64,000 bases of DNA from Leucobacter luti (GTDB lineage Bacteria; Actinomycetota; Actinomycetes; Actinomycetales; Microbacteriaceae). Positions within the stretch are counted from its first letter, which is position 1, and the number at the start of each line of letters is the position of its first letter. The notes below the pieces were generated by a model. It did no database searches. It had not been told where the DNA came from and saw only the letters and a program-made list of their open reading frames with translations. The DNA is taken from assembly GCF_004217175.1 (NCBI RefSeq), contig NZ_SHKI01000004.1, positions 372,001 through 436,000 on the forward strand. Reading direction: 5' to 3'. The position numbers were made by a program, and so were the translations under genes. Of the stretch, positions 1,497-23,205 are shown in pieces.

Positions 1497-2630
1497 CTAG
1501 AGGCGCTTGAGGCGGGGGATCTCGCGCGCCGCTCCGGCGTCTGCGGGCACGATGACCTCCTGCGCCGCCGCGATCGTCTCGGTGACCTCGGCCTTCGCGT
1601 CGTCGCCCGTTTCGCCACCGCGCACCTCAAGCTCGGCGTCCTCGGGCACCGAGCGCTTGAGCAGCGCCAGCGCGATGCCGCCCCACTCGTGGTGCAGCGC
1701 CGCGCGGGTCACACGTCCGACCGGGCGCGCGTCCGAGTCCGCGGCCGTGCCGGAGAGGTGCACGATCGCGCCCGGCACCGGCAGCTCGCCACGGGAGCCG
1801 TCGAGGTGCAACAGCACCAGCCGGCGCGGCGGGTGGCCCAGGTTGTGCACCTTGGCGATGGTCTCCTGGCCCCGGTAGCACCCCTTGGTGAGGTGCACCG
1901 AGGTGCGCAGCCAGTCAAACTCGTGCGGGATCGAGCGCTCGTCCACGTCAGCGTGCTGCGTGGGGCGCCAGGCCCGCACCTCGAGCGCGTCGAGCGCGAG
2001 CAGGCCGGCCGCGCGCACCTCGCCCGCGCCGACACGGGCCGCGAGGCCCGGGAGCGCTTCGCGCGCAAACACGAACTGCGACGCGGTCCACTCCGCGCCG
2101 GCGTGAGCTTCACCGCGCGCGTACTGCACGCCGCCGGGGAGCACCCCGGCCCACGGATCACGCCACTCAGCGGCGGGCCCCGCGGCGCGCAGCAGTTCGG
2201 CGGCCGGGCCAGCGAACGCGAGCACGGCGGCGAACTCGTCCGAGGCGTTGCGCACGCTCACGCGCAGCGCGAAGCGCATCCGCGTGAGGAAATCGGTGAG
2301 CGGCTCGGCCGACCCTTCGTCGACGAGTAGCCAGGCGCGCTCGCCATCGTCGACGATCCTGATCGCGCGCTCAATGCGCCCGTTCGGGTCGAGCAGCAGC
2401 GTCTCGGTGCTCTCGCCCGGTCGCAGCCCGGTCAGCTGCTGGCTCGTCATCGAGTGCAGCCAGCTGAGCCGGTCCTGCCCCTCAACGATTACCACGCCGC
2501 GGTGCGACAGGTCGACGATCGCAGCGCCCTCGTCGAGCGCGCGCTGCTCAGCCAACGGCTCGCCGTAGTGTGCGGCCACGCCAAGCTCGGGGACGAGCAC
2601 CGCCCCCGGGAGTTCGCTGAATCCTGTCAT
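1497..2630 (-). CDS. ygfZ: Folate-binding YgfZ/GcvT-like protein
   Basis: A 377-residue protein of the YgfZ family, which binds tetrahydrofolate and helps maintain iron-sulfur enzymes. The family signature KGCYRGQE with its conserved cysteine is seen in LTKGCYRGQETIAKVHNLG, followed by the C-terminal barrel segment with GRVTRAALHHEWGGIALALL. The N-terminal GcvT-like fold includes LSHRGVVIVEGQDRLSWLHS. It is somewhat longer than E. coli YgfZ (326), as is normal for actinobacterial members. It does not carry the full GcvT length or glycine-cleavage context, so aminomethyltransferase is unlikely. Confidence 0.9.
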   Translation of the reverse strand: MTGFSELPGAVLVPELGVAAHYGEPLAEQRALDEGAAIVDLSHRGVVIVEGQDRLSWLHSMTSQQLTGLRPGESTETLLLDPNGRIERAIRIVDDGERAWLLVDEGSAEPLTDFLTRMRFALRVSVRNASDEFAAVLAFAGPAAELLRAAGPAAEWRDPWAGVLPGGVQYARGEAHAGAEWTASQFVFAREALPGLAARVGAGEVRAAGLLALDALEVRAWRPTQHADVDERSIPHEFDWLRTSVHLTKGCYRGQETIAKVHNLGHPPRRLVLLHLDGSRGELPVPGAIVHLSGTAADSDARPVGRVTRAALHHEWGGIALALLKRSVPEDAELEVRGGETGDDAKAEVTETIAAAQEVIVPADAGAAREIPRLKRL

Positions 2631-2663
2631 CGGTTCACCGGAGTCCGGGAACTCGGCGCGGTG

Positions 2664-2774
2664 CTAGCGCTGACCCTTGAAGAGCTTGTAGATGACGGTG
2701 CCCGAGATCCAGGCGATCGCGAGCGACGCGAGGCCCAGGAGACCAATGAAGAAGAGTTCCAGCGCAAGCAACAT
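2664..2774 (-). CDS. Small single-pass membrane protein (36 aa)
   Basis: A 36-residue reading frame starts MLLALELFFIGLLGLASLAI and ends with the basic tail YKLFKGQR, giving one hydrophobic helix with a positive C-terminus. A TAGACT -10 box lies six bases before the ATG (2781-2786 on the plus strand), consistent with a leaderless transcript. It sits between ygfZ and another small membrane protein on the same strand. I do not recognise a named family; the promoter and the clean membrane topology are what support it. Confidence 0.65.
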   Translation of the reverse strand: MLLALELFFIGLLGLASLAIAWISGTVIYKLFKGQR

Positions 2775-2811
2775 GCTTCAAGTCTACCCGAACCGAGCCG
2801 GGATCACCGGG

Positions 2812-3117
2812 TCAGGAACCGAACAGCAAGTTTGCCACGTCGATCACGGCGATGACGAGCACCGATCCGGCAACGCTAAAGGCGACGCGCGTAATAAACC
2901 CGACACGCTGCGCCGTGCCGAGCTGCAGCGCAAAGGTGACGAGCGTGCTCGCCCCCACCGCGAACGCGAGCCAGGCGAACCGGTCGTCCGCCGGGACGAG
3001 GATCGTCACGAGCGTGCCGATGATCGCCGCGACCGCCCACGCAATAATGAGGCGCGGAATGTGCCAGGAGTGCGCGTCGGGCATCTCCGGGGCGTCGTCG
3101 TGAGTGGGTTCGGTCAC
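2812..3117 (-). CDS. Conserved small membrane protein
   Basis: About 101 residues with three predicted membrane helices (LIIAWAVAAIIGTLVTILV, FAWLAFAVGASTLVTFAL, VAFSVAGSVLVIAVIDVANL) after a short hydrophilic start. The GTG at 3117 is preferred because GGAAGA lies eight bases upstream. A GTG at 3135 would add six residues but has no ribosome site. The protein resembles small conserved actinobacterial membrane proteins without known function. Confidence 0.75.
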   Translation of the reverse strand: MTEPTHDDAPEMPDAHSWHIPRLIIAWAVAAIIGTLVTILVPADDRFAWLAFAVGASTLVTFALQLGTAQRVGFITRVAFSVAGSVLVIAVIDVANLLFGS

Positions 3118-3207
3118 GTCGTCATTCTTCCACACTCCGGGAATTGCGCGCCTGACCGGGTCGCAGCACGGCGTACTGTTGCGCGGAGGTTACGCTCGGG
3201 CACTCGC

Positions 3208-3225
3208 GTGAAACGGGTGTGAAAC
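3208..3225 (+). promoter_or_regulatory. GTGAAAC direct repeats in the glnR promoter
   Basis: Two perfect GTGAAAC boxes at 3208-3214 and 3219-3225 are spaced exactly 11 bp apart. They overlap the expected -35 position of a -10 box TACACT at 3237-3242. The pattern fits GlnR half-sites (GTNAC/GAAAC at 11-bp spacing), so autoregulation of glnR is a reasonable inference. Confidence 0.5.
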
Positions 3226-3282
3226 AGTTCCCGACATACACTGGGACTCAGCGTTATAGGGAACGATGAAGGGAGCGACGCG

Positions 3283-3957
3283 ATGCAGCTGCTCTGCCTC
3301 ACTGATCGCGATCCGGCCGAGTCGTTGCCCGGACTCGACCTGCTGCCGCACGACGTGCGCACGTCGCCGCTGTCGCTCCGGGTGCCGGAAACGCTGGCCG
3401 CACGCTACGACGCGCTGCTGATCGACGGCACGCTCGACGCTCGCCGCGCCCGCGCCGCCTGCCTTGGGCTCAAGGCCGGAGCGAACACCCCGCGCGTGGT
3501 CATCCTGCCCGAGGTGGCGCTCACCGCGCTCACGGTTGAGTGGGGGGTGAGCGAACTGCTGCTTCCCACCGCGAGTCCCGCGGAAATTGAAGTCCGCCTG
3601 CGCCTGCTCGAGCAGCCAGCATCACAATCACCTCCGCCCGCGGTCCAAGCCGCGGGCGTTGTCATTGATGAATCGAATTTCACGGCCAGGCTGTTTGGCC
3701 GGCCGCTCGATCTCACCTACAAGGAGTTCGAGCTGCTGCACTTCCTCGCAGGCAACCCCGGCCGCGTGTTCACGCGCGACCAGCTGCTCAGCGAGGTCTG
3801 GGGAACCGACTACTTTGGGGGGACACGCACGGTTGACGTGCATGTCCGACGGCTGCGCGCCAAGCTCGGCGACCACGAAGCGCTCATCAGCACGGTGCGC
3901 GGCGTGGGGTACGGGTTCGCGCGGTCTCGGATCGACGACGAGGAGGCCCCCGCATGA
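3283..3957 (+). CDS. glnR: OmpR-family response regulator, GlnR type
   Basis: A 224-residue transcription factor with an N-terminal receiver-like domain (residues 1-115) and a C-terminal winged helix (about 130-217). The DNA-binding part carries LTYKEFELLHFLAGNPGRVF and TRTVDVHVRRLRAKLG, and the N-terminal pattern (LIDGTLDARRARAACLGLK, VEWGVSELLLPTASPAEIEV) matches GlnR, the global nitrogen regulator of actinobacteria. The receiver keeps Asp48 but lacks the usual Lys-Pro pair at the end of strand 5, as in atypical orphan regulators. The start follows AAGGGAG. Its stop overlaps the mshD start (ATGA), the same glnR-mshD order as in Mycobacterium. Confidence 0.85.
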   Translation: MQLLCLTDRDPAESLPGLDLLPHDVRTSPLSLRVPETLAARYDALLIDGTLDARRARAACLGLKAGANTPRVVILPEVALTALTVEWGVSELLLPTASPAEIEVRLRLLEQPASQSPPPAVQAAGVVIDESNFTARLFGRPLDLTYKEFELLHFLAGNPGRVFTRDQLLSEVWGTDYFGGTRTVDVHVRRLRAKLGDHEALISTVRGVGYGFARSRIDDEEAPA

Positions 3958-4928
3958 TCACGCTGCACCGACTCGATGCGACCCCCGAGGCGGCACTCGT
4001 CGCGGCGCGGTCGGTGATCGCCGAGGCGACGGAGTTCGACGGCGCCTCACCGGTGTCGGATCAGGCGCTGCTCGCCGTGTCGCAGGGGAAGCGCGACCTC
4101 GCCCTCTTCGCTGACGCTCCCGGAGCCGAGCGGATCGTCGCGGTGGGGATCGTCGGCGAGGGCGAAGTCGACCTCGCCGTGCGTCCGGACGACCGCGGCC
4201 GCGGTGTCGGTACCGCGGCGCTCGCCGCGCTGCTCGATCTGGCCACCGAGGGCTCCGCCGCGCCAGCGGGTGCCGGATCGACGCCCGCCCCGGCGCTGCT
4301 CGCGTGGGCGCACGGCGAGAACCCTGCGGCCGAAGCCCTGCTGCGCGGGGCCGGATTCACGCCCGTGCGCTCGCTGTACCGGATGGCACTGGATCCCGCG
4401 CTGCTGCCGAGCGACGGCCGCGACCCGCTCGCCACCCCGCTCCCCGACGGACTCTCCCTGCACACCTTCGACGCGGCGCGCGACGCCGCCGAGTGGGTAC
4501 GCGTGAACGCCGCGGCGTTCGCGAGCCACCCCGAGCAGGGCCGCATTTCTCAGGCGGACTTCGCGCTGATGCGCGAAGAGGCCTGGTTTGACCCCGATGA
4601 CCTCATCCTGCTCACCGGCGCGCGGGATGAGGTCATCGGTTCTACCTGGGTGAAGACGGTGCGCGAGGGCGACGGCACCGTCGAGACGGAGCTGTACGCG
4701 GTGGGAGTCGATCCCGCGCACGCCGGGCGGGGCCTCGGAAAGGCGCTGCTCGACGCAACGCTCGCGCGCATGGCCCAGCACGATCCGGCGCGAGTGACAC
4801 TCTACGTTGACGGCGAGAACGAGCGCGCCGTGCGCATGTACGAGGCGGCCGGGTTCACCATTGATTCACGCAGTCGCCAGTGGTCACGGGCCACAGTGCC
4901 GGATGCAGGTGCCAGAATGGACGCATGA
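3954..4928 (+). CDS. mshD: Mycothiol synthase
   Basis: A 324-residue double-GNAT acetyltransferase that makes the last step of mycothiol, acetylating Cys-GlcN-Ins with acetyl-CoA. The N-terminal GNAT half has DDRGRGVGTAALAALL. The C-terminal half has FASHPEQGRISQADF, a diagnostic MshD segment, then PAHAGRGLGKALLDATL and LYVDGENERAVRMYEAAGF. The length is typical (300-320). It overlaps glnR by four bases and ppk by four bases, so it is translationally coupled inside the operon. Its presence marks the host as a mycothiol-making actinobacterium. Confidence 0.93.
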   Translation: MITLHRLDATPEAALVAARSVIAEATEFDGASPVSDQALLAVSQGKRDLALFADAPGAERIVAVGIVGEGEVDLAVRPDDRGRGVGTAALAALLDLATEGSAAPAGAGSTPAPALLAWAHGENPAAEALLRGAGFTPVRSLYRMALDPALLPSDGRDPLATPLPDGLSLHTFDAARDAAEWVRVNAAAFASHPEQGRISQADFALMREEAWFDPDDLILLTGARDEVIGSTWVKTVREGDGTVETELYAVGVDPAHAGRGLGKALLDATLARMAQHDPARVTLYVDGENERAVRMYEAAGFTIDSRSRQWSRATVPDAGARMDA

Positions 4929-7051
4929 GCGAAGACACGTCGGCGATCTCCACCGATCTCACGCCCCTGCCCGAGGATCGGTACATCGACCGTGAGCTGA
5001 GCTGGCTCGCGTTCAACCAGCGCGTGCTCGAACTCGCGGAGGATCCGACGGTGCCGCTGCTTGAGCGCGCCAACTTCCTCGCAATCTTCGCGTCGAACCT
5101 CGACGAGTTCTTCATGGTGCGCGTCGCGGGGCTCAAGCGCCGCATTGTCACCGGCCTCGCGGTGCCCACGAACGTGGGCCGGGCGCCGACCGACGTGCTC
5201 GCCGACATCAACCGCACCGCGTACGAGCTGCAGCGTCGCCACGCGGCGTGCTTCCGCAACCAGGTGCTCCCCGACCTCGCCGAGGCGGGGATCCGGATCG
5301 TGGGCTGGGAGCAGCTCGACGACGCGGATCGCGCGATCCTCACGGACTACTACGAGCAGCGCATCTACCCGGTGCTCATGCCGCTCGCGGTGGACCCGGC
5401 GCACCCGTTCCCCTACATTTCGGGGCGCGCGCTCAACCTCTCGATCCGTGTGCGCAACCCGCGCACCGACAAGACCGAGTTCGCCAGGCTCAAGGTGCCG
5501 CAGATGATCCCGCGCTACGTGCGCGTCGATCGGCGGGAAAATGAGGAGGACGTGCGGTTCATCCCGCTCGAGGCGCTCATCGCGAACCAGCTCGACGACC
5601 TGTTCCCCGGCATGGAGGTCATCGATCACCACGTCTTCCGCGTCACGCGCAACGAGGACATGGAGATCGAGGAGGACGAGACCGAGAACCTGATCCAGGC
5701 GCTCGAAAAGGAGCTGCTGCGCCGCCGCTTCGGACCGCCGATCCGCCTCGAGATCTCCGACGACATGGACGCGGCGACGCTTGAGCTGCTCGTGCGCGAG
5801 TTCGACATCGACGAGGAGCAGGTCTACACACTGCCGGCGCCGCTCGACCTGAGCGGCCTGTTCGCGCTCGCCCGCATCCCCCGGCCCGATCTCAAGTTCA
5901 AGCCGCACATCCCAGTGACGCACCCGCAGTTCCGCACGAACTCGCCCGGAGAAAAGCCGGACACGTTTGCGGCGATCGCGCGGCGCGAGATCCTCGTGCA
6001 CCACCCGTACGAGTCGTTCTCCACGAGCGTGCAGGCATTCCTTGAGCAGGCGGCGACGGATCCCGATGTGCTCGCGATCAAGCAGACCCTGTACCGCACC
6101 TCGGGCGACAGCCCCATCGTGGCGGCGCTCATCAAGGCCGCCGAGGCCGGCAAGCAGGTGCTCGCACTCGTCGAGGTGAAGGCGCGCTTCGACGAGGAGG
6201 CGAACATCACCTGGGCGCGCAAGCTTGAGCAGGCGGGCGTGCACGTCGTGTACGGCCTCGTCGGGCTCAAGACGCACTGCAAACTGGTGCAGGTGATCCG
6301 CGAGGAGGGCGGCCGGCTCGCCCACTACTGCCACATCGGAACGGGCAACTACAACCCGAAGACGAGCCGCATCTACGAGGACTTCGGCCTGTTCACATCC
6401 TCCCCCGAGATCAGCCGCGACGTCACGAAGCTGTTCAACGTGCTCTCCGGCTACGCGATCGAGACCGACTACGACCGGCTGCTCGTCGCGCCGCTGCAGC
6501 TGCGCAGCGGGCTGCTCGAACGGATTGAGCGCGAGGCGGACCACGCCCGCGCCGGTCGGCCGAGCGGCATCAAGCTGAAGGCAAACTCGATGGTGGACGA
6601 GGCGATCATCGACGCCCTGTACCGCGCCAGCCAGGCGGGCGTGCCGATCCAGGTGTGGGTGCGCGGAATCTGCTCGATCCGCGCCGGGGTGCCGGGCATG
6701 TCCGAGAACATTCAGGTGCGCTCGGTGCTCGGCCGGTACCTTGAGCACTCGCGCATCTACGCGTTCGAGAACGACGGCGAGCGCGACGTGTTCATCGGCA
6801 GCGCAGACCTGATGCACCGCAACCTCGATCGCCGCATCGAGGTGCTCGTGCGGATCACCGACCGGGAGCACCTCGCCCGCGTCGACCGGTTCTTCGCGTT
6901 CGCGTTCAGCGACGACGTGTCGTCCTGGCGCATGCTCCCAGACGGCACGTGGCAGCGCCGCGTGATCAGCGAGGAGGGCGAGCTGCTCCCGGATCTGCAG
7001 GATCTCGTGATGCTCGACCGCACCGAGGCGAGGGCCCGGCGAGCCAGGTGA
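4925..7051 (+). CDS. ppk: Polyphosphate kinase 1
   Basis: A 708-residue enzyme that reversibly transfers the ATP gamma-phosphate onto inorganic polyphosphate. It starts with the N-domain signature YIDRELSWLAFNQRVLELA. Two phospholipase-D-like catalytic domains follow, with LKTHCKLVQVIREEGGRLAH carrying the phosphorylated histidine and EHSRIYAFENDGERDVFIGS carrying the second. The ATG at 4925 overlaps the mshD stop; an upstream in-frame reading from 4880 lies inside mshD and is rejected. The gene overlaps mutT1 by four bases. Its place before pst genes links it to phosphate storage. Confidence 0.95.
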   Translation: MSEDTSAISTDLTPLPEDRYIDRELSWLAFNQRVLELAEDPTVPLLERANFLAIFASNLDEFFMVRVAGLKRRIVTGLAVPTNVGRAPTDVLADINRTAYELQRRHAACFRNQVLPDLAEAGIRIVGWEQLDDADRAILTDYYEQRIYPVLMPLAVDPAHPFPYISGRALNLSIRVRNPRTDKTEFARLKVPQMIPRYVRVDRRENEEDVRFIPLEALIANQLDDLFPGMEVIDHHVFRVTRNEDMEIEEDETENLIQALEKELLRRRFGPPIRLEISDDMDAATLELLVREFDIDEEQVYTLPAPLDLSGLFALARIPRPDLKFKPHIPVTHPQFRTNSPGEKPDTFAAIARREILVHHPYESFSTSVQAFLEQAATDPDVLAIKQTLYRTSGDSPIVAALIKAAEAGKQVLALVEVKARFDEEANITWARKLEQAGVHVVYGLVGLKTHCKLVQVIREEGGRLAHYCHIGTGNYNPKTSRIYEDFGLFTSSPEISRDVTKLFNVLSGYAIETDYDRLLVAPLQLRSGLLERIEREADHARAGRPSGIKLKANSMVDEAIIDALYRASQAGVPIQVWVRGICSIRAGVPGMSENIQVRSVLGRYLEHSRIYAFENDGERDVFIGSADLMHRNLDRRIEVLVRITDREHLARVDRFFAFAFSDDVSSWRMLPDGTWQRRVISEEGELLPDLQDLVMLDRTEARARRAR

Positions 7052-8001
7052 GCGCCGAGATTCTGGCCGCCGGCACCGTCTGCTGGCGGCGGGTGCCGAG
7101 CGCGGGCGGGGAGCGGCTGCACGTGCTCCTCATTCACCGCACCAAGCAGCGGGACGTGTCGTTCCCCAAGGGGAAGCTCGACCCGGGTGAGAGCATGCCG
7201 CAGGCCGCCGTGCGCGAAACACACGAGGAGACCGGGCTGCGGGTCTCGCTCGGCGTGATGCTCGGCACCATCAACTACAAGCTGAACGGCGGCAGTCGCC
7301 GCAAGACGGTGCAGTACTGGGCCGCCGAGGTCACGAGCGAGGCGGCGCTCGCGTCGACGTTCACGCCAAACAACGAGGTGCAGGCGCTCGAGTGGGTCCC
7401 CGCGGACGAGGCCCGCGCCCGGCTGAGCTACACAGCCGACCAGGAGCTCTACGACGTGTTTCTGCGTCTCGCCGAGCACGATCTGCTCGACACGTTCTCC
7501 GTCACCCTGCTGCGTCACGCGAAGGCGGAGCCGCAGGGGGCCGGCACCCCGGCGGACCACCTGCGCCCGCTCACCGCGGTGGGCACGGAGCAGGCGCAGA
7601 TCCTGGTCCCGATCCTCGAAGCGTTCGGGCCACAGCGGCTCCGCTCGTCAACCGCGCGGCGCTGCCTCGAGACGATCGCGCCGCTCGCCAAGCGACTCAA
7701 CAAGCGGGTGCGCGTCACCGAGGCGCTGAGCCAGGACTTCTGGGACGCCGGCGATCTGTCCCTCACGCGCAAGCTCGTGGGCAAGATTGTGAAACAGGGG
7801 AAGAACACCGTGATCTGCAGCCACCTCCCCGTGCTGCCGGATCTGGCGCGCGAGCTCGTGCTCGCAACGGGGAGCGTCCCCGGCGACTACCTGACGGCGT
7901 CGGCAGCGCTTCCGCCCGCCGGATTCTCGGTGTTTCACCTGTCCCGAACACGGCCGGGCGCAGGGATCCTCGCGGTTGAGACGTACCCGCTGAAGCACTG
8001 A
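7048..8001 (+). CDS. mutT1: MutT1-like NUDIX hydrolase fused to histidine phosphatase
   Basis: A 317-residue two-domain protein. Residues 1-140 form a NUDIX domain with the full box GKLDPGESMPQAAVRETHEE followed by TGL. Residues 150-317 form a SixA/PGAM-type phosphatase with VTLLRHAKAE and the late ICSHLPVLPDLARELV. Length and order match mycobacterial MutT1, which hydrolyses 8-oxo-(d)GTP and diadenosine polyphosphates and lies next to ppk there too. The start is a GTG that overlaps the ppk stop (GTGA); a longer frame from 6949 would sit inside ppk. Confidence 0.88.
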   Translation: MSAEILAAGTVCWRRVPSAGGERLHVLLIHRTKQRDVSFPKGKLDPGESMPQAAVRETHEETGLRVSLGVMLGTINYKLNGGSRRKTVQYWAAEVTSEAALASTFTPNNEVQALEWVPADEARARLSYTADQELYDVFLRLAEHDLLDTFSVTLLRHAKAEPQGAGTPADHLRPLTAVGTEQAQILVPILEAFGPQRLRSSTARRCLETIAPLAKRLNKRVRVTEALSQDFWDAGDLSLTRKLVGKIVKQGKNTVICSHLPVLPDLARELVLATGSVPGDYLTASAALPPAGFSVFHLSRTRPGAGILAVETYPLKH

Positions 8002-8088
8002 GTAGGGCACTCGTGCGGCCGGATGCTGAATCCGCGGTAACGATTGGGTACCGACGCCAGCGGTGGGGTCTCTCGCGCGCTCCCGCGC

Positions 8089-8132
8089 GTTCACCCGTTG
8101 TTCACCCGCTGGCAGACCGCGCTTCACGAAGC
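8089..8132 (+). promoter_or_regulatory. PHO box of the pst operon
   Basis: Two consecutive 11-bp units, gttcacccgtt (8089-8099) and gttcacccgct (8100-8110), match the actinobacterial PhoP direct repeat GTTCACC. A weak third unit (8111-8121) and a fourth with TTCAC (8122-8132) keep the same 11-bp register. A candidate -10 (TAGCGT, 8138-8143) follows. PhoP~P activation of pstS under phosphate limitation is the expected outcome. Confidence 0.8.
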
Positions 8133-8201
8133 CCGCATAGCGTGGGGATGTAGCCAGGAACGGCTACCACCCCATCCGCTCTCAGATTGGATCACACCCA
8201 A

Positions 8202-9305
8202 GTGAAGCTCTCAGCACTCACCAAGGTCGCAGCTATCGGCGGTCTCGCCGCACTCACGCTGACCTCCTGCGCCGCGAACGAGTCGGGGACGGCCACGCCG
8301 ACCGACGGCGGCTCCGCTTCTTCGCTCTCGGGCGAGCTCGTTGGTGCGGGCGCCTCGTCGCAGGGTTCTGCGCAGGAAGCCTGGGTTGCCGGATTCCAGA
8401 CCACGCACGCAGACGTCACGATCAACTACGATCCGACCGGCTCCGGCGCGGGCCGCGAGACGTTCCAGCAGGGCGCGAGCGCGTTCGCTGGCTCGGACCG
8501 CGCGTTCAAGGCCGAGGAGATCACCGCCGGCCCGTTCGAGGCCTGCGCACCCGACACCGGCATCGTTGAGTTCCCCGCCTACATCTCCCCGATCGCGCTG
8601 ATCTTCAACGTCGAGGGTGTCGACTCGCTGCAGCTCGACGCTCCCACGGTCGCGAAGATCTTCTCGGGCGCGATCACCACCTGGAACGATCCGGCGATCG
8701 CCGCGCAGAACGAGGGCGTTACGCTGCCCGATACGAACATCACGGCGGTGCACCGCTCGGACGAGTCGGGCACCACCGGGAACTTCACCGACTACCTCGC
8801 CGAGGCAGCGCCGAGCGACTGGACCGTCGGCTCGATCGAGTCCTGGCCCACCGAGTTCGGCGGCGAGGGCGCCCAGGGCACCTCGGGCGTCGTCGAGGCC
8901 GTCACCAACGGCGTTGGCACCATCGGCTACGCCGATGCCTCGCGCGCCGGCGACCTCGGCACGGTCGAGATCAAGGTCGGCGACGAGTACGTCGCGTACT
9001 CCCCCGAGGCCGCCGCCGCAATCGTCGACGCATCCCCCCTCGAGGACGGCCGCACCGACCACGACCTCGCGATCAAGCTCGACCGCACCTCCACCGAGGC
9101 CGGCGTGTACCCGATCGTGCTCGTGAGCTACCTCATCGGCTGCGAGAGCTACGCCGACCCGGCGAACTCCGAGCTCGTCAAGGAGTACTTCACCTACATC
9201 GTCAGCGAAGAGGGCCAGCAGGTCGCCGCAGACGCCGCGGGCTCCGCCCCGATCTCGTCGGACCTCCGCGACAAGATCACCCCGGCGATCGCCGCAATCA
9301 GCTAG
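8202..9305 (+). CDS. pstS: Phosphate ABC transporter substrate-binding lipoprotein
   Basis: A 367-residue periplasmic-type phosphate-binding lipoprotein. It has a lipoprotein signal MKLSALTKVAAIGG and the lipobox LTSC, with the acylated cysteine near residue 23. Phosphate-contacting segments are visible: LVGAGASSQGSAQEAW, DPTGSGAGRETF, HRSDESGTTGNFTDYL. The GTG at 8202 is chosen because it gives a clean signal peptide with Lys2; an in-frame TTG at 8187 would add five residues. No strong ribosome site is seen for either. A PHO box lies 90 bases upstream and pstC, pstA and pstB follow. Confidence 0.93.
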   Translation: MKLSALTKVAAIGGLAALTLTSCAANESGTATPTDGGSASSLSGELVGAGASSQGSAQEAWVAGFQTTHADVTINYDPTGSGAGRETFQQGASAFAGSDRAFKAEEITAGPFEACAPDTGIVEFPAYISPIALIFNVEGVDSLQLDAPTVAKIFSGAITTWNDPAIAAQNEGVTLPDTNITAVHRSDESGTTGNFTDYLAEAAPSDWTVGSIESWPTEFGGEGAQGTSGVVEAVTNGVGTIGYADASRAGDLGTVEIKVGDEYVAYSPEAAAAIVDASPLEDGRTDHDLAIKLDRTSTEAGVYPIVLVSYLIGCESYADPANSELVKEYFTYIVSEEGQQVAADAAGSAPISSDLRDKITPAIAAIS

Positions 9306-9312
9306 TCCGCAG

Positions 9313-9346
9313 CGTGCGGGGCGCGGCTCACGCCGCGCCCCGCACG
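9313..9346 (+). terminator. Intercistronic hairpin between pstS and pstC
   Basis: A perfect 15-bp inverted repeat (9313-9327 with 9332-9346, arm cgtgcggggcgcggc) with a 4-nt loop lies seven bases past pstS. Hairpins at this place in pst operons often act as partial terminators or protect the upstream mRNA, giving more PstS than membrane subunits. There is no T run, so attenuation or mRNA stabilisation is more likely than full termination. Confidence 0.7.
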
Positions 9347-9391
9347 TCGGGTAGCCTCATCACACACACCCGCTACAACCCAGGAGCCTGA

Positions 9392-10330
9392 GTGAGCGTC
9401 GCCTCCGCCCCATCAAAGCCGGTACTGAGCCTCGGCGATCGCGTCTTCTCGCGGTCGGCGCTCTTCGCGGGCAGCATGATCCTCGTCACCCTCGCCGCCG
9501 TCGCGATCTTCCTGATCGTGCGCAGCCTCCCGGCATTCGTCGCCACCGACGAGACCGCCTCGCTGCTCAGCAGCAACTTCTGGGCGTACGTTGGCCCCCT
9601 GGTCTTCGGCACCGTGTGGGCGGCAACGCTCGCGCTCGCGATCTCGCTGCCGCTCGCGATCGGAATCGCCCTCTTCATCTCGCACTACGCGCCCCGCCAG
9701 CTGGCACAGGTGCTCGGCTACGTCGTGGATCTCCTCGCGGCGGTTCCGAGCGTCGTGTTCGGCCTGTGGGGCATCGGCGTGCTCGCCCCCGCCGCGCAGC
9801 CGATCTACGCCTGGCTCAACGATCACCTCGGCTGGATCCCGCTCTTCGGCGGCGTCGTGACCGGAACCGGCCGCACGATCCTCACCGCGTCCCTCGTGCT
9901 CGCGGTGATGATCCTCCCGATCATGACCGCGATCTGCCGCGAGATCTTCCTGCAGGCCCCCATGCTCCACAAGGAGGCGGCGCTCGCGCTCGGCGCCACG
10001 CGCTGGGAGATGATCCGCCTCGCGGTGCTCCCGTTCGGTCGCCCCGGCATCATCTCCGCCGCGATGCTCGGCCTCGGTCGCGCCCTCGGCGAGACCATGG
10101 CTGTCGCGATGGTGCTCTCCGCCACCGGCATCGTCAGTTTCCGGCTACTCACCTCCGAGAACCCGTCGACGATCGCGGCGAACATCGCGCTCGCGTTCCC
10201 GGAAGCCTACGGCGAGAACATCAACGTGCTCATCGCCACCGGCCTGATCCTCTTCGTGGTCACCTTCCTCGTCAACGCGCTGGCACGGTGGATCATTAGC
10301 CGCCGCGCAGAGTTCTCGGCCGCAAACTGA
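9392..10330 (+). CDS. pstC: Phosphate ABC transporter permease PstC
   Basis: A 312-residue inner-membrane permease with six hydrophobic helices. The MetI-like permease loop is seen in EAALALGATRWEMIRLAVLP followed by GLGRALGETMAVAMV. It pairs with PstA to form the phosphate channel. The GTG at 9392 follows CAGGAG with good spacing. Its stop overlaps by one base an ATG at 10330 that could also be read for pstA. Confidence 0.93.
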   Translation: MSVASAPSKPVLSLGDRVFSRSALFAGSMILVTLAAVAIFLIVRSLPAFVATDETASLLSSNFWAYVGPLVFGTVWAATLALAISLPLAIGIALFISHYAPRQLAQVLGYVVDLLAAVPSVVFGLWGIGVLAPAAQPIYAWLNDHLGWIPLFGGVVTGTGRTILTASLVLAVMILPIMTAICREIFLQAPMLHKEAALALGATRWEMIRLAVLPFGRPGIISAAMLGLGRALGETMAVAMVLSATGIVSFRLLTSENPSTIAANIALAFPEAYGENINVLIATGLILFVVTFLVNALARWIISRRAEFSAAN

Positions 10331-10359
10331 TGCTGCAGCAGTCTGAACGGAAAGAAAAG

Positions 10360-11451
10360 ATGAGCACACCCGTGGCACTCACCGTCCGTCCCGTCAACGC
10401 GGGATCGGCCCTGGCCGGCAACCGGCTCTCACGCGCCACCCCGTGGATCGTGCTCGCCGCGAGCCTCGTCGGTGCGTTCGCGCTGTTCGGTCTCCTCGCG
10501 GCCGCGACCGGCGGCGCGTTCTCGCTCGTCGGCGCGATCATCGTGGGCGCACTCGCCTACGTCGCGGTCATCACGATCCTCTCCGGCTTCGTCGAGGGCC
10601 GGCGCCAGGCGGTCGACCGCTGCATCACCGCATTCGTCACGGGCGCGTTCCTGCTCGCCATGGTGCCGCTCGTCTCCGTCGCGATCACGGTCGTGAACAA
10701 CGGCATCGCCCGCTTCGACGCCGAGTTCTTCTCCTCGTCGATGCGCAACGTCACCGGCGAGGGCGGCGGCGCCCTCCACGCGATGATCGGCACGCTGCTC
10801 ATCACGCTCGCGGCCACGATCATCTCCGTGCCGCTCGGGCTCATGACCTCGATCTACCTGGTCGAGTACGGTCAGGGCCGCCTCGCGAAGATCATCACCT
10901 TCCTCGTCGACGTGATGACGGGCATCCCGTCGATCGTCGCCGGCCTGTTCGCGTTCGCCCTGTTCGCGGTGTTCCTCGGGCCGGGCATCCGCATGGGTAT
11001 CGTCGGCGCGGTCGCGCTCTCGGTGCTCATGATCCCGGTCGTGGTGCGTTCAAGCGAGGAGATGCTCCGCCTCGTCCCGAACGAACTGCGCGAAGCGTCG
11101 TACGCGCTCGGCGTGCCCAAGTGGCGCACGATCCTGAAGATCGTGCTCCCCACCTCGATCGCCGGCATCACCACCGGCGTGATGCTCTCGATCGCCCGCG
11201 TGATCGGCGAGACCGCACCGCTGCTCATCACCGCCGGCTTCACCGCCTCGATGAACTACAACCTGTTCTCGGACCGCATGCAGTCGCTGCCGGTGTACGT
11301 GTACACGCAGTTCGCAAACCAGGGCAATCCGGCCTTCGCGTTCATGGAACGCGCCTGGGCCGCCGCCCTCCTCCTCATCCTGATCGTCATGGCGCTCAAC
11401 CTCTTCGCACGCCTCATCGCGAAGTGGTTCTCCCCCAAGTTCGGCCGCTAG
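10360..11451 (+). CDS. pstA: Phosphate ABC transporter permease PstA
   Basis: A roughly 363-residue permease, longer at the N-terminus than E. coli PstA (296), with two extra hydrophobic helices before the usual six. The permease loop [20 protein letters not shown] and [15 protein letters not shown] are typical. The ATG at 10360 follows a purine-rich ribosome site (CGGAAAGAAAAG); an ATG at 10330 that overlaps the pstC stop would add ten residues. It works with PstC and PstB. Confidence 0.92.
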
Positions 11452-22574: not shown

Positions 22575-22784
22575 CAGCGGAGCGCCTGTAGCCGATTCGT
22601 GAGCGATAGTTCACCGTCCTCGTGTGGTGTGGGGCCGTGCGCGGAACCGAGCGCGGATCCCTCAATCCTACGCCGAGCGCGCGTGGCGCTCCGGCCCAGG
22701 TCGCACCGGCAATGGCACACCCTCAATGCCCGTCCCGAAACGCCGCTCGCGCACGAGCCTTCGCGCGATTCCCCGAAACGAAGA

Positions 22785-22881
22785 AAATCCCCGCGAACGC
22801 GGAGCTTTTCAGAGTGGATCTGAGGGGCGCGGAATCTTCAACGGAAACGCGCCCGCGTTTCCAGATTCCGCGCGATTCCCC
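22785..22881 (-). ncRNA. tRNA-Ala-tail structured repeat, unit 1
   Basis: Read on the minus strand: ggggaatc, a 47-nt hairpin (22827-22873), then cccctcagatccac (22814-22827), which equals the 3' end of tRNA-Ala, then a Rho-independent terminator ending in TTTTC. The hairpin has an 11-bp and an 8-bp stem separated by a 5-nt bulge, closed by a 4-nt loop. No open frame explains it. Whether it is transcribed is unknown; read-through from tRNA-Ala is the simplest source. Confidence 0.55.
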
Positions 22882-22885
22882 GAAG

Positions 22886-22985
22886 ACAAAAGGCCCCGCT
22901 ACTGCGGGGCCAAAGTGGTGGATCTGAGGGGCGCGAGATTTTCAGATGAAACGCGTCAGCGTTTCAAAATCTCGCGCGATTCCCC
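22886..22985 (-). ncRNA. tRNA-Ala-tail structured repeat, unit 2
   Basis: Same layout as its neighbours, with hairpin 22931-22977, tRNA-Ala tail copy 22918-22931 and a different terminator (ggccccgc at 22892-22899 with gcggggcc at 22904-22911, then TTTTGTC on the minus strand). Its hairpin differs from units 1 and 3 at ten arm positions, yet the stem is intact because four substitutions on one arm are matched by four on the other. Confidence 0.55.
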
Positions 22986-22992
22986 GAAACGA

Positions 22993-23092
22993 AGAAAAGC
23001 CCCGCGAACGCGGAGCTTTTCAGAGTGGATCTGAGGGGCGCGGAATCTTCAACGGAAACGCGCCAGCGTTTCCAGATTCCGCGCGATTCCCC
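22993..23092 (-). ncRNA. tRNA-Ala-tail structured repeat, unit 3
   Basis: Hairpin 23038-23084, tRNA-Ala tail copy 23025-23038 and a terminator identical in stem to that of tRNA-Ala itself. Its hairpin arms equal those of unit 1; only the loop differs (gcca against gccc on the plus strand). It is the unit nearest the real tRNA gene. The unit spacing is 107 bp from here to the tRNA and to unit 2, and 104 bp to unit 1. Confidence 0.55.
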
Positions 23093-23101
23093 GAAACGAA
23101 G

Positions 23102-23127
23102 AAAAGCCCCGCGAACGCGGAGCTTTT
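23102..23127 (-). terminator. Terminator of tRNA-Ala
   Basis: An inverted repeat aaaagccccgcg (23102-23113) with cgcggagctttt (23116-23127), one mismatch, begins six bases past the tRNA 3' end on the minus strand and ends in GCTTTTC. The same stem recurs in structured repeat units 1 and 3. Confidence 0.75.
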
Positions 23128-23132
23128 CAGAG

Positions 23133-23205
23133 TGGATCTGAGGGGAATCGAACCCCTGACCTTCTCATTGCGAACGAGACGCGCTACCAACTGCGCCACA
23201 GACCC
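23133..23205 (-). tRNA. tRNA-Ala (CGC)
   Basis: A complete cloverleaf on the minus strand: acceptor gggtctg with cagatcc, D arm gcgc/gcgc, anticodon loop ttcgcaa giving anticodon CGC, T arm agggg/cccct around ttcgatt, discriminator A. It reads GCG codons. G3 pairs with T70, the identity element for alanyl-tRNA synthetase. CCA is not encoded. Copies of its 3' end recur in the adjacent repeat units. Confidence 0.95.

What the first reader, a model, noticed from the sequence alone, without database searches (positions are those of the whole stretch)
22767..23205. Array of three tRNA-Ala-tailed hairpin units with compensatory base changes
Three tandem ~105-bp units follow tRNA-Ala on the minus strand. 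Each has ggggaatc, a 47-nt bulged hairpin, cccctcagatccac (the 3' end of tRNA-Ala) and a terminator. Unit 2 differs from units 1 and 3 in the hairpin arms, but four paired positions changed on both sides (G:C to A:T, A:T to G:C, C:G to T:A, G:C to T:A), so the stem is kept. That pattern implies selection on structure. Only the acceptor and T-stem strand of the tRNA is copied, never the 5' half. A remnant fourth unit (gattcccc at 22767) lies further out. Possible roles are a family of small RNAs mimicking the tRNA 3' end, a mobile repeat that targets tRNA ends, or a processing decoy. I know of no described element with this layout.
Basis: partly seen in the sequence, partly recalled or inferred. 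Interest (0 to 1): 0.75.

Follow-up and report, generated by a model that had tools for sequence, protein, structure and literature searches.

The report
tRNA-tail arrays seeded by bulged hairpins
Downstream of a tRNA gene in a Leucobacter genome lie three tandem copies of a hairpin plus the tRNA's own 3' end, and the hairpin belongs to a family found behind several tRNA genes in the genus; the arrays likely grew by copying errors at palindromes, as a similar array in E. coli may have, and a role as small RNAs is untested.

Summary
In detail: three 104-107-bp units plus a remnant follow tRNA-Ala(CGC), and four stem pairs of unit 2 changed on both sides. Three things were missed. (1) Each unit carries an inverted piece of the host tRNA T-arm against the hairpin, and it follows the host tRNA (GGGGAATC, GGGGATTC, GGGGACTC). 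(2) The 47-nt bulged hairpin belongs to a Leucobacter-centred family, found in 39 of 54 genus genomes; in a sample biased towards tRNAs, 53 of 134 copies lie at tRNA genes, others overlap stop codons. All seven detected copies in the window's genome lie beside tRNA tails. (3) E. coli tyrV has the same layout: three 178-bp units, each with 19 nt of tRNA-Tyr and an inverted T-arm. So the layout is known; the hairpin family, host-matched motif and spread over several tRNAs appear new. No IS200/RAYT-type transposase was found in 54 genomes. Most likely these are REP-like palindromes, and the tRNA arrays grew as micro-scale tandem inversion duplications at palindromes. Paired changes show maintained pairing, not that RNA is the molecule; a small-RNA role is untested and weakened by the decayed tRNA-like helix here.

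The parts
23132..23205 (-). tRNA-Ala(CGC); last 14 nt CCCCTCAGATCCAC are the copied tail, GATTCCCC (23142-23149) is the segment copied inverted
   Evidence: ARAGORN; Rfam tRNA
23101..23128 (-). terminator hairpin behind the tRNA (type A)
23085..23092 (-). GGGGAATC, inverted copy of the tRNA T-arm, unit 1
   Evidence: local alignment p 0.02 against shuffles
23038..23084 (-). 47-nt bulged hairpin, unit 1
   Evidence: core model 63.9 bits
23025..23038 (-). copy of tRNA 3' tail, unit 1 (first C shared with hairpin foot)
22994..23021 (-). terminator hairpin (type A), unit 2
22978..22985 (-). GGGGAATC inverted T-arm, unit 2
   Evidence: p 0.01
22931..22977 (-). 47-nt bulged hairpin, unit 2, four compensated pair changes
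   Evidence: 60.1 bits
22918..22931 (-). copy of tRNA tail, unit 2 (followed by CA, so CCA is encoded here)
22892..22911 (-). terminator hairpin of a different type (B), unit 3
22874..22881 (-). GGGGAATC inverted T-arm, unit 3
   Evidence: p 0.02
22827..22873 (-). 47-nt bulged hairpin, unit 3
   Evidence: 59.7 bits
22814..22827 (-). copy of tRNA tail, unit 3
22783..22810 (-). terminator hairpin (type A, one change) of the truncated fourth unit
   Evidence: (as 22789-22804)
22767..22774 (-). GGGGAATC inverted T-arm of the truncated fourth unit
22741..22766 (-). decayed remnant of a fourth hairpin (GCGCG...CGCGAGCGGCG), by eye
   Evidence: sequence

Best explanation
The array is made of tandem copies of tRNA 3' tail, terminator, inverted T-arm and a bulged hairpin of a Leucobacter-centred palindrome family, and it likely arose by template switching at two neighbouring palindromes (a micro-scale tandem inversion duplication) and then probably grew by unequal crossing-over, rather than as a set of dedicated small RNAs. 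Shown: the direct-inverted-hairpin-direct order at Ala(CGC), Ala(GGC) and Val(GAC) loci (at Thr the order is looser); the inverted motif follows the host tRNA; inverted copy, hairpin and tail are all missing together from ten array-free Val loci; the hairpin family also sits at protein-gene ends. Inferred: that the hairpin came first as a REP-like element behind the terminator; that terminator hairpin and bulged hairpin acted as the two turning points (the unit drawn as a circle is a dumbbell); that tails stay close to the tRNA because the tRNA-proximal unit keeps seeding the others. The hairpin's stem is kept by selection or by palindrome correction on DNA; which of the two is open.
For: 47 of the 53 tRNA-linked units were tested for an inverted copy of a reference host tRNA beside the hairpin: 40 of 47 at unadjusted p<=0.05 (300 shuffles each; related units are not independent), abutting it in 39 of 47. 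Ten array-free Val loci: 0 of 10 at p<=0.05, 0 of 10 with a tail copy, 0 of 10 with a hairpin better than E 0.4. Motif tracks host: GGGGAATC/GATTCCCC, GGGGATTC/GAATCCCC, GGGGACTC/GAGTCCCC. Tails: Val 19 of 29 and Ala 14 of 19 identical to one reference tail. Copy number differs between relatives: 3 units here, 1 plus a remnant in G001, which contig length identifies as L. chromiireducens LYC-2. Same topology in E. coli tyrV. [quoted passage not shown] Hairpin family: 39 of 54 genus genomes at E<=0.01; 7 of 7 listed copies of the window's genome beside tRNA tails.
Against: No event was caught in action; one genome per species. The inverted copy is long in some species (24 of 25 nt in L115) but 8 nt in the window, where chance or selection could contribute. 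7 of 47 units miss p<=0.05, and at Thr loci the match lies 22 nt away. The fold-back model does not say how the hairpin itself got behind each tRNA. In the window the order of terminator types A, A, B, A and hairpin types a, b, a does not fit one simple round of duplication.
Confidence: 0.5

Rival explanations
1. The hairpins are selected RNA elements: terminator read-through would yield small RNAs ending in the tRNA tail, acting as sponges, decoys or 3'-end stabilisers.
For: Stem kept by paired changes across 41 hairpins: 123 cells with both sides changed, 3 one-sided, 94.1% of 648 cells paired against 31-61% slid. At protein genes the longest ORF ends 5-24 nt into the hairpin on one strand in 28 of 81 copies against 6 of 81 on the other (my count from the listing), and genes with alike C-termini in different genomes keep the hairpin (L109/L215; L196/L209/L224; L113/L126/L179/L182/L229). 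A promoter-like site lies in unit 2 on the tRNA strand (1 found, 0.0 expected). E. coli annotates an sRNA, RttR, in its analogous array.
Against: The hairpin strand that is sense at protein genes is antisense at tRNAs: 48 of 49 copies with a tRNA in reach have it on the other strand, so the same RNA is not made at both. The acceptor/T-stem-like helix is decayed in the window. No one-sided changes in the tRNA-Ala set, where RNA selection would tolerate G-U.
Confidence: 0.22
2. A mobile element proper: an unknown single-strand enzyme would insert units at the tRNA, the short motif at the hairpin foot acting as a guide that pairs with the target (GATT|CCCC in Ala, AGGTCA|CTGG in Val), as in IS200/IS605.
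For: The motif is complementary to the sequence just 5' of the copied tail in Ala and Val units; guide tetranucleotides 5' of a hairpin foot are described for IS200 and REP (PMC6006769, passages); dispersed family with up to 29 hits per genome; mispairs lean to one strand, 85 A.C against 37 G.T.
Against: Y1_Tnp in 0 of 54 genomes, controls rang in 5 of 14; Y2_Tnp in 1 of 54, but no control genome rang; RVT_1 in 8 of 54 and not in the window's genome. The strand lean is 74:37 in a stricter recount and 55:33, p 0.025, without one shared position, on related copies. Units of 104-138 bp leave no room for an enzyme gene.
Confidence: 0.18
3. Accretion by tRNA-targeting integrative elements: each tail would be an att site left by integration and deletion, or the array would serve as spare att sites.
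For: In the window's genome tRNA-Val is split from its unit by about 9.6 kb bounded by tail copies, with a 407-aa phage-type integrase (PF00589, E 1.6e-14) beside the right tail; a closely similar hairpin and terminator recur in L121, where no tRNA was found in 2.6 kb.
Against: Units of 104-138 bp hold no integrase; integration alone gives direct repeats, not an inverted T-arm, nor bulged hairpins at protein-gene ends.
Confidence: 0.1

Closest known systems
E. coli tyrT/tyrV distal repeats (RttR / rtT RNA, tpr)
   Same: tRNA followed by three tandem units, each with an exact copy of the tRNA 3' end (19 nt at +160, +338, +516) and an inverted T-arm piece (22 nt at +60, +238, +416, 19 of 22 matching; tested against shuffles in unit 1 only, p 0.003)
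   Different: Units are 178 bp; only tRNA-Tyr was looked at; the inverted piece lies about 80 nt before the tail, not against one hairpin; the Leucobacter hairpin family also occurs away from tRNAs
REP / CGTC repeats (PMC3733652)
   Same: Short palindromes in many copies downstream of genes, with stem-changed subfamilies, often supplying the stop codon, sometimes nested inside larger palindromes; CGTC repeats lack a dedicated transposase there too (passages)
   Different: No GTAG/CGTC tag on the hairpin itself, a conserved 4-5 nt bulge, no Y1 transposase in 54 genomes; the passages list CGTC repeats in five phyla without Actinobacteria
Tandem inversion duplication / ODIRA inverted triplication
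   Same: Direct-inverted-direct order with inverted repeats at both turns (PMC10766183, passages); small inverted triplications are reported too (PMC13334657, search listing only)
   Different: Here the copied piece is about 14-35 nt, recurs at several tRNAs and carries a family hairpin at one turn; the term tandem inversion duplication is recalled
IS200/IS605 ends with guide sequences
   Same: Short target-matching motif at the foot of a hairpin (PMC6006769, passages)
   Different: No Y1 transposase in the genus sample

Membership tests
REP/RAYT system | dispersed short palindrome, many copies, 3' of genes | tested here: met
   39 of 54 genomes; ORF end inside hairpin in 28 of 81 non-tRNA copies against 6 of 81 on the other strand (my count)
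REP/RAYT system | RAYT (Y1_Tnp) in the genome | tested here: not met
   0 of 54 genomes; controls rang in 5 of 14
REP/RAYT system | GTAG or CGTC tag next to the hairpin foot | tested here: not met
   by eye: tRNA units show host-tRNA-derived motifs instead; CGTC occurs in an enclosing palindrome of some gene-end copies
E. coli rtT/tyrT repeats | tandem units behind a tRNA each ending in its 3' end | tested here: met
E. coli rtT/tyrT repeats | match to a curated RNA family | tested here: not met
   Rfam at gathering threshold finds only the three tRNAs in the window; that an rtT family is in the library is recalled
E. coli rtT/tyrT repeats | stable RNA released from the tRNA transcript | not testable with these tools
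   no transcript data
Tandem inversion duplication / ODIRA | direct-inverted-direct copies with palindromic turns | tested here: met
   inverted copy in 40 of 47 units at p<=0.05; array-free loci 0 of 10
Tandem inversion duplication / ODIRA | the event seen forming from an empty locus | not testable with these tools
   one genome per species held
IS200/IS605 | Y1 HUH transposase | tested here: not met
   0 of 54
Integrative element att array | integrase inside the repeated unit | tested here: not met
   units of 104-138 bp leave no room for a gene; an integrase lies in the 9.6-kb stretch at tRNA-Val only

The most novel reading that the evidence does not exclude
A self-spreading hairpin that copies the end of its host gene: the bulged palindrome carries a short guide made from the host tRNA, and with it an unknown enzyme of Leucobacter copies tRNA 3' ends, forward and backward, into growing arrays; the hairpin and terminator would cap a dumbbell-shaped circle of about 105-138 nt that is rolled out in tandem.
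Probability: 0.12. Interest if true: 0.85.

Novelty: new variant of a known kind. Interest (0 to 1): 0.52.

Why it matters
As far as I recall, the E. coli tyrT repeats have stood as a curiosity of one locus. Finding the same direct-inverted-direct layout at several tRNA genes in a distant genus, with the inverted piece matching each host tRNA, points to a recurrent process at tRNA 3' ends. Because copy number differs between close relatives and stems change mostly in pairs, the Leucobacter arrays make it directly testable whether such palindromes are kept by selection on RNA or by copying between the arms of DNA, and how REP-like repeats persist without a transposase.

Tried and rejected
RAYT/IS200 origin: Y1_Tnp in 0 of 54 genomes. 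Y2_Tnp: 1 of 54, without a ringing control. RVT_1: 8 of 54; 6 of those 8 have hairpin hits, so no exclusive link, and the window's genome has none. A strand preference of the hairpin looked clear at first (85:37); a stricter recount gave 74:37, and 55:33 (p 0.025, related copies) without one shared mispair, so I keep it only as a lean. The crude folding also counts 118 other mispairs against 2247 Watson-Crick pairs: stems are not perfect in all copies. GNA/GNNA loops on the strand opposite to the tRNA, 82 of 127 (my sum), were noted; that such DNA loops are very stable is recalled. CRISPR and TIGR arrays were considered from memory and dropped: the arms here are complementary, not independent. 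Integron attC was considered, not tested. Paper searches; none listed a paper on rtT/RttR or on such arrays in Actinobacteria in this open-access library, so 'not in print' is not claimed. Sampling: loci were fetched from the best hits, whose listings were cut, and the first of those models was built on tRNA-Ala units, so the tRNA share of 53 in 134 is biased upward; on the other side the script missed some tails that differ (L097, L103 by eye) and a copy abutting tRNA-Arg (L116). Rows dropped: two of the 136 hits (the reverse-strand duplicate of L120 and one short L230 hit); identical hairpins before (134 to 127); six of 53 tRNA-linked copies were not tested (no tRNA in reach, or tRNA-Leu/Ser).

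Full report
Observation. Reading the minus strand from tRNA-Ala(CGC) (23132-23205), the window has four terminator-like hairpins, four GGGGAATC motifs, three 47-nt bulged hairpins and three copies of CCCCTCAGATCCAC beyond the tRNA's own, with unit spacings 107, 104 and 107. Unit 2 differs from units 1 and 3 in the stem by four changes that each alter both sides and by none that alters one side. Over nine tRNA-Ala units from four genomes (G000, G001, G009, G015), 28 cells changed on both sides, none on one side only, 4 of 207 cells were unpaired, and no shuffle of 500 reached the covariation score.

The hairpin is a family. A model of nine units and a core model of 41 hairpins were searched over 54 genus genomes; the core model found hits in 39 of 54 at E<=0.01, up to 29 in one genome. 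Names came from one DNA pattern scan of named genomes, which gave L. chromiireducens (two records), L. sp. 7(1) and L. massiliensis. In the family sample of 150 genomes 6 had a hit at E<=0.001, one of them the window's own and five from other genera; in an order sample of 297 only the window's genome had one, at the stricter E<=1e-4. So the family is centred on the genus. Of 134 hairpins in fetched loci, 44 were followed by a tRNA tail and 9 more lay near a tRNA; where a tRNA was in reach it was Val(GAC) 26 times, Ala(CGC) 11, Ala(GGC) 7, Thr(TGT) 3, Leu(CAG) 1 and, on the other strand, Ser(CGA) 1. The sample is biased towards tRNAs because it grew from a tRNA-Ala model. One Val case is in another genus (L236). 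All seven listed copies of the window's genome lie beside tRNA tails.

The inverted copy. Ala and Val units hold, abutting the hairpin, a piece of the host tRNA in reverse: GGGGAATC where the tRNA reads GATTCCCC, GGGGATTC where it reads GAATCCCC, GGGGACTC where it reads GAGTCCCC, and CAGTGACC for tRNA-Val GGTCACTG. Of 47 units tested, 40 match the reversed reference tRNA at p<=0.05 and 39 do so touching the hairpin; in L115 the match runs 24 of 25 nt. The seven misses are both L098 units (scored against another version of the tRNA; their own tRNA fits), both L214 units, L101, L129 and L195. Related units are not independent. Ten Val loci chosen because no hairpin was listed there have no inverted copy at p<=0.05, no tail copy and no hairpin better than E 0.4.

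Copies at protein genes. Of 81 copies without a recognised tRNA, 28 have an ORF on one strand that ends 5-24 nt into the hairpin, against 6 on the other strand (my count from the listing, which gives only the longest ORF per strand). Genes with alike C-termini in different genomes keep the hairpin, for example EDGSVTSMFEGAA (L109, L215) and AARVREWARNFQG and kin (L113, L126, L179, L182, L229); orthology is inferred from these ends alone. Some of these copies sit inside a larger palindrome starting CGTCATCCTGCG (by eye).

E. coli. The K-12 record annotates tyrT, tyrV, RttR and tpr there. The script finds exact 19-nt copies of the tRNA-Tyr 3' end at +160, +338 and +516 behind tyrV and a 22-nt inverted T-arm piece (19 of 22 matching) in each of the three units, p 0.003 against shuffles in unit 1. 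I recall, but could not find in the library, papers on rtT RNA and the stringent response.

Mechanism. Tail-terminator-inverted tail is one palindrome, inverted tail-hairpin-tail another; the unit closed on itself is a dumbbell. [quoted passage not shown] This would explain why inverted copy, hairpin and tail appear and vanish together. It does not explain the first arrival of the hairpin, for which a REP-like element is the best guess; but no Y1 transposase was found in the 54 genomes, so membership in REP/RAYT is not claimed. REPs that supply stop codons and CGTC repeats without a dedicated transposase are known (PMC3733652: passages seen).

Small RNA or decoy? The helix that would mimic the tRNA acceptor and T-stem is near complete in L047 (GTGGAT...ATCCAC plus GGGG/CCCC) but only GGGG with CCCU in the window. 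The hairpin strand that is sense at genes is antisense at tRNAs. These points speak against, but do not exclude, an RNA role; one promoter-like site in unit 2 and the RttR annotation in E. coli speak for it.

Integrative elements. In the window's genome about 9.6 kb with a phage-type integrase (PF00589) lie between tRNA-Val and its unit, bounded by tail copies, so tails may serve as att sites.

Noticed in passing
L094 (G000:C7) 1765-11346: About 9.6 kb between tRNA-Val(GAC) and a tail copy, with a 407-aa phage-type integrase (PF00589) next to the right tail; a further 2.4 kb with a 439-aa ORF (AAA_16, below Pfam's cut-off) lies between two hairpin-tail units.
   Followed up: partly
L253 (E. 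coli K-12 1286600-1287800): The three repeat units behind tyrV contain an inverted T-arm piece (22 nt, 19 matching) besides the 19-nt direct tail copies.
   Followed up: yes
L123, L125, L130, L133, L186, L218-L222: Gene-end hairpins nested in a palindrome beginning CGTCATCCTGCG or close to it (by eye), resembling CGTC-tagged REPs, which the passages seen of PMC3733652 list in five phyla without Actinobacteria.
   Followed up: no
L095 2603-3615: The Gly-Cys-Val tRNA operon of G015 is duplicated together with its hairpin array (713-bp spacing).
   Followed up: no
window 22916-22931: The tail after hairpin 2 encodes CCA (GATCCACCA) while the tRNA itself does not; most array-bearing tRNA-Ala genes seen lack encoded CCA, several array-free ones have it.
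   Followed up: no
hairpins: Loops on the strand opposite to the tRNA are mostly GNA or GNNA (82 of 127), and the bulge on that strand starts with T in 110 of 127.
   Followed up: partly
L058 (G006) tRNA-Ala(GGC): A single decayed hairpin behind terminator and GGGGATTC without any tail copy, a possible one-copy or dying state.
   Followed up: no
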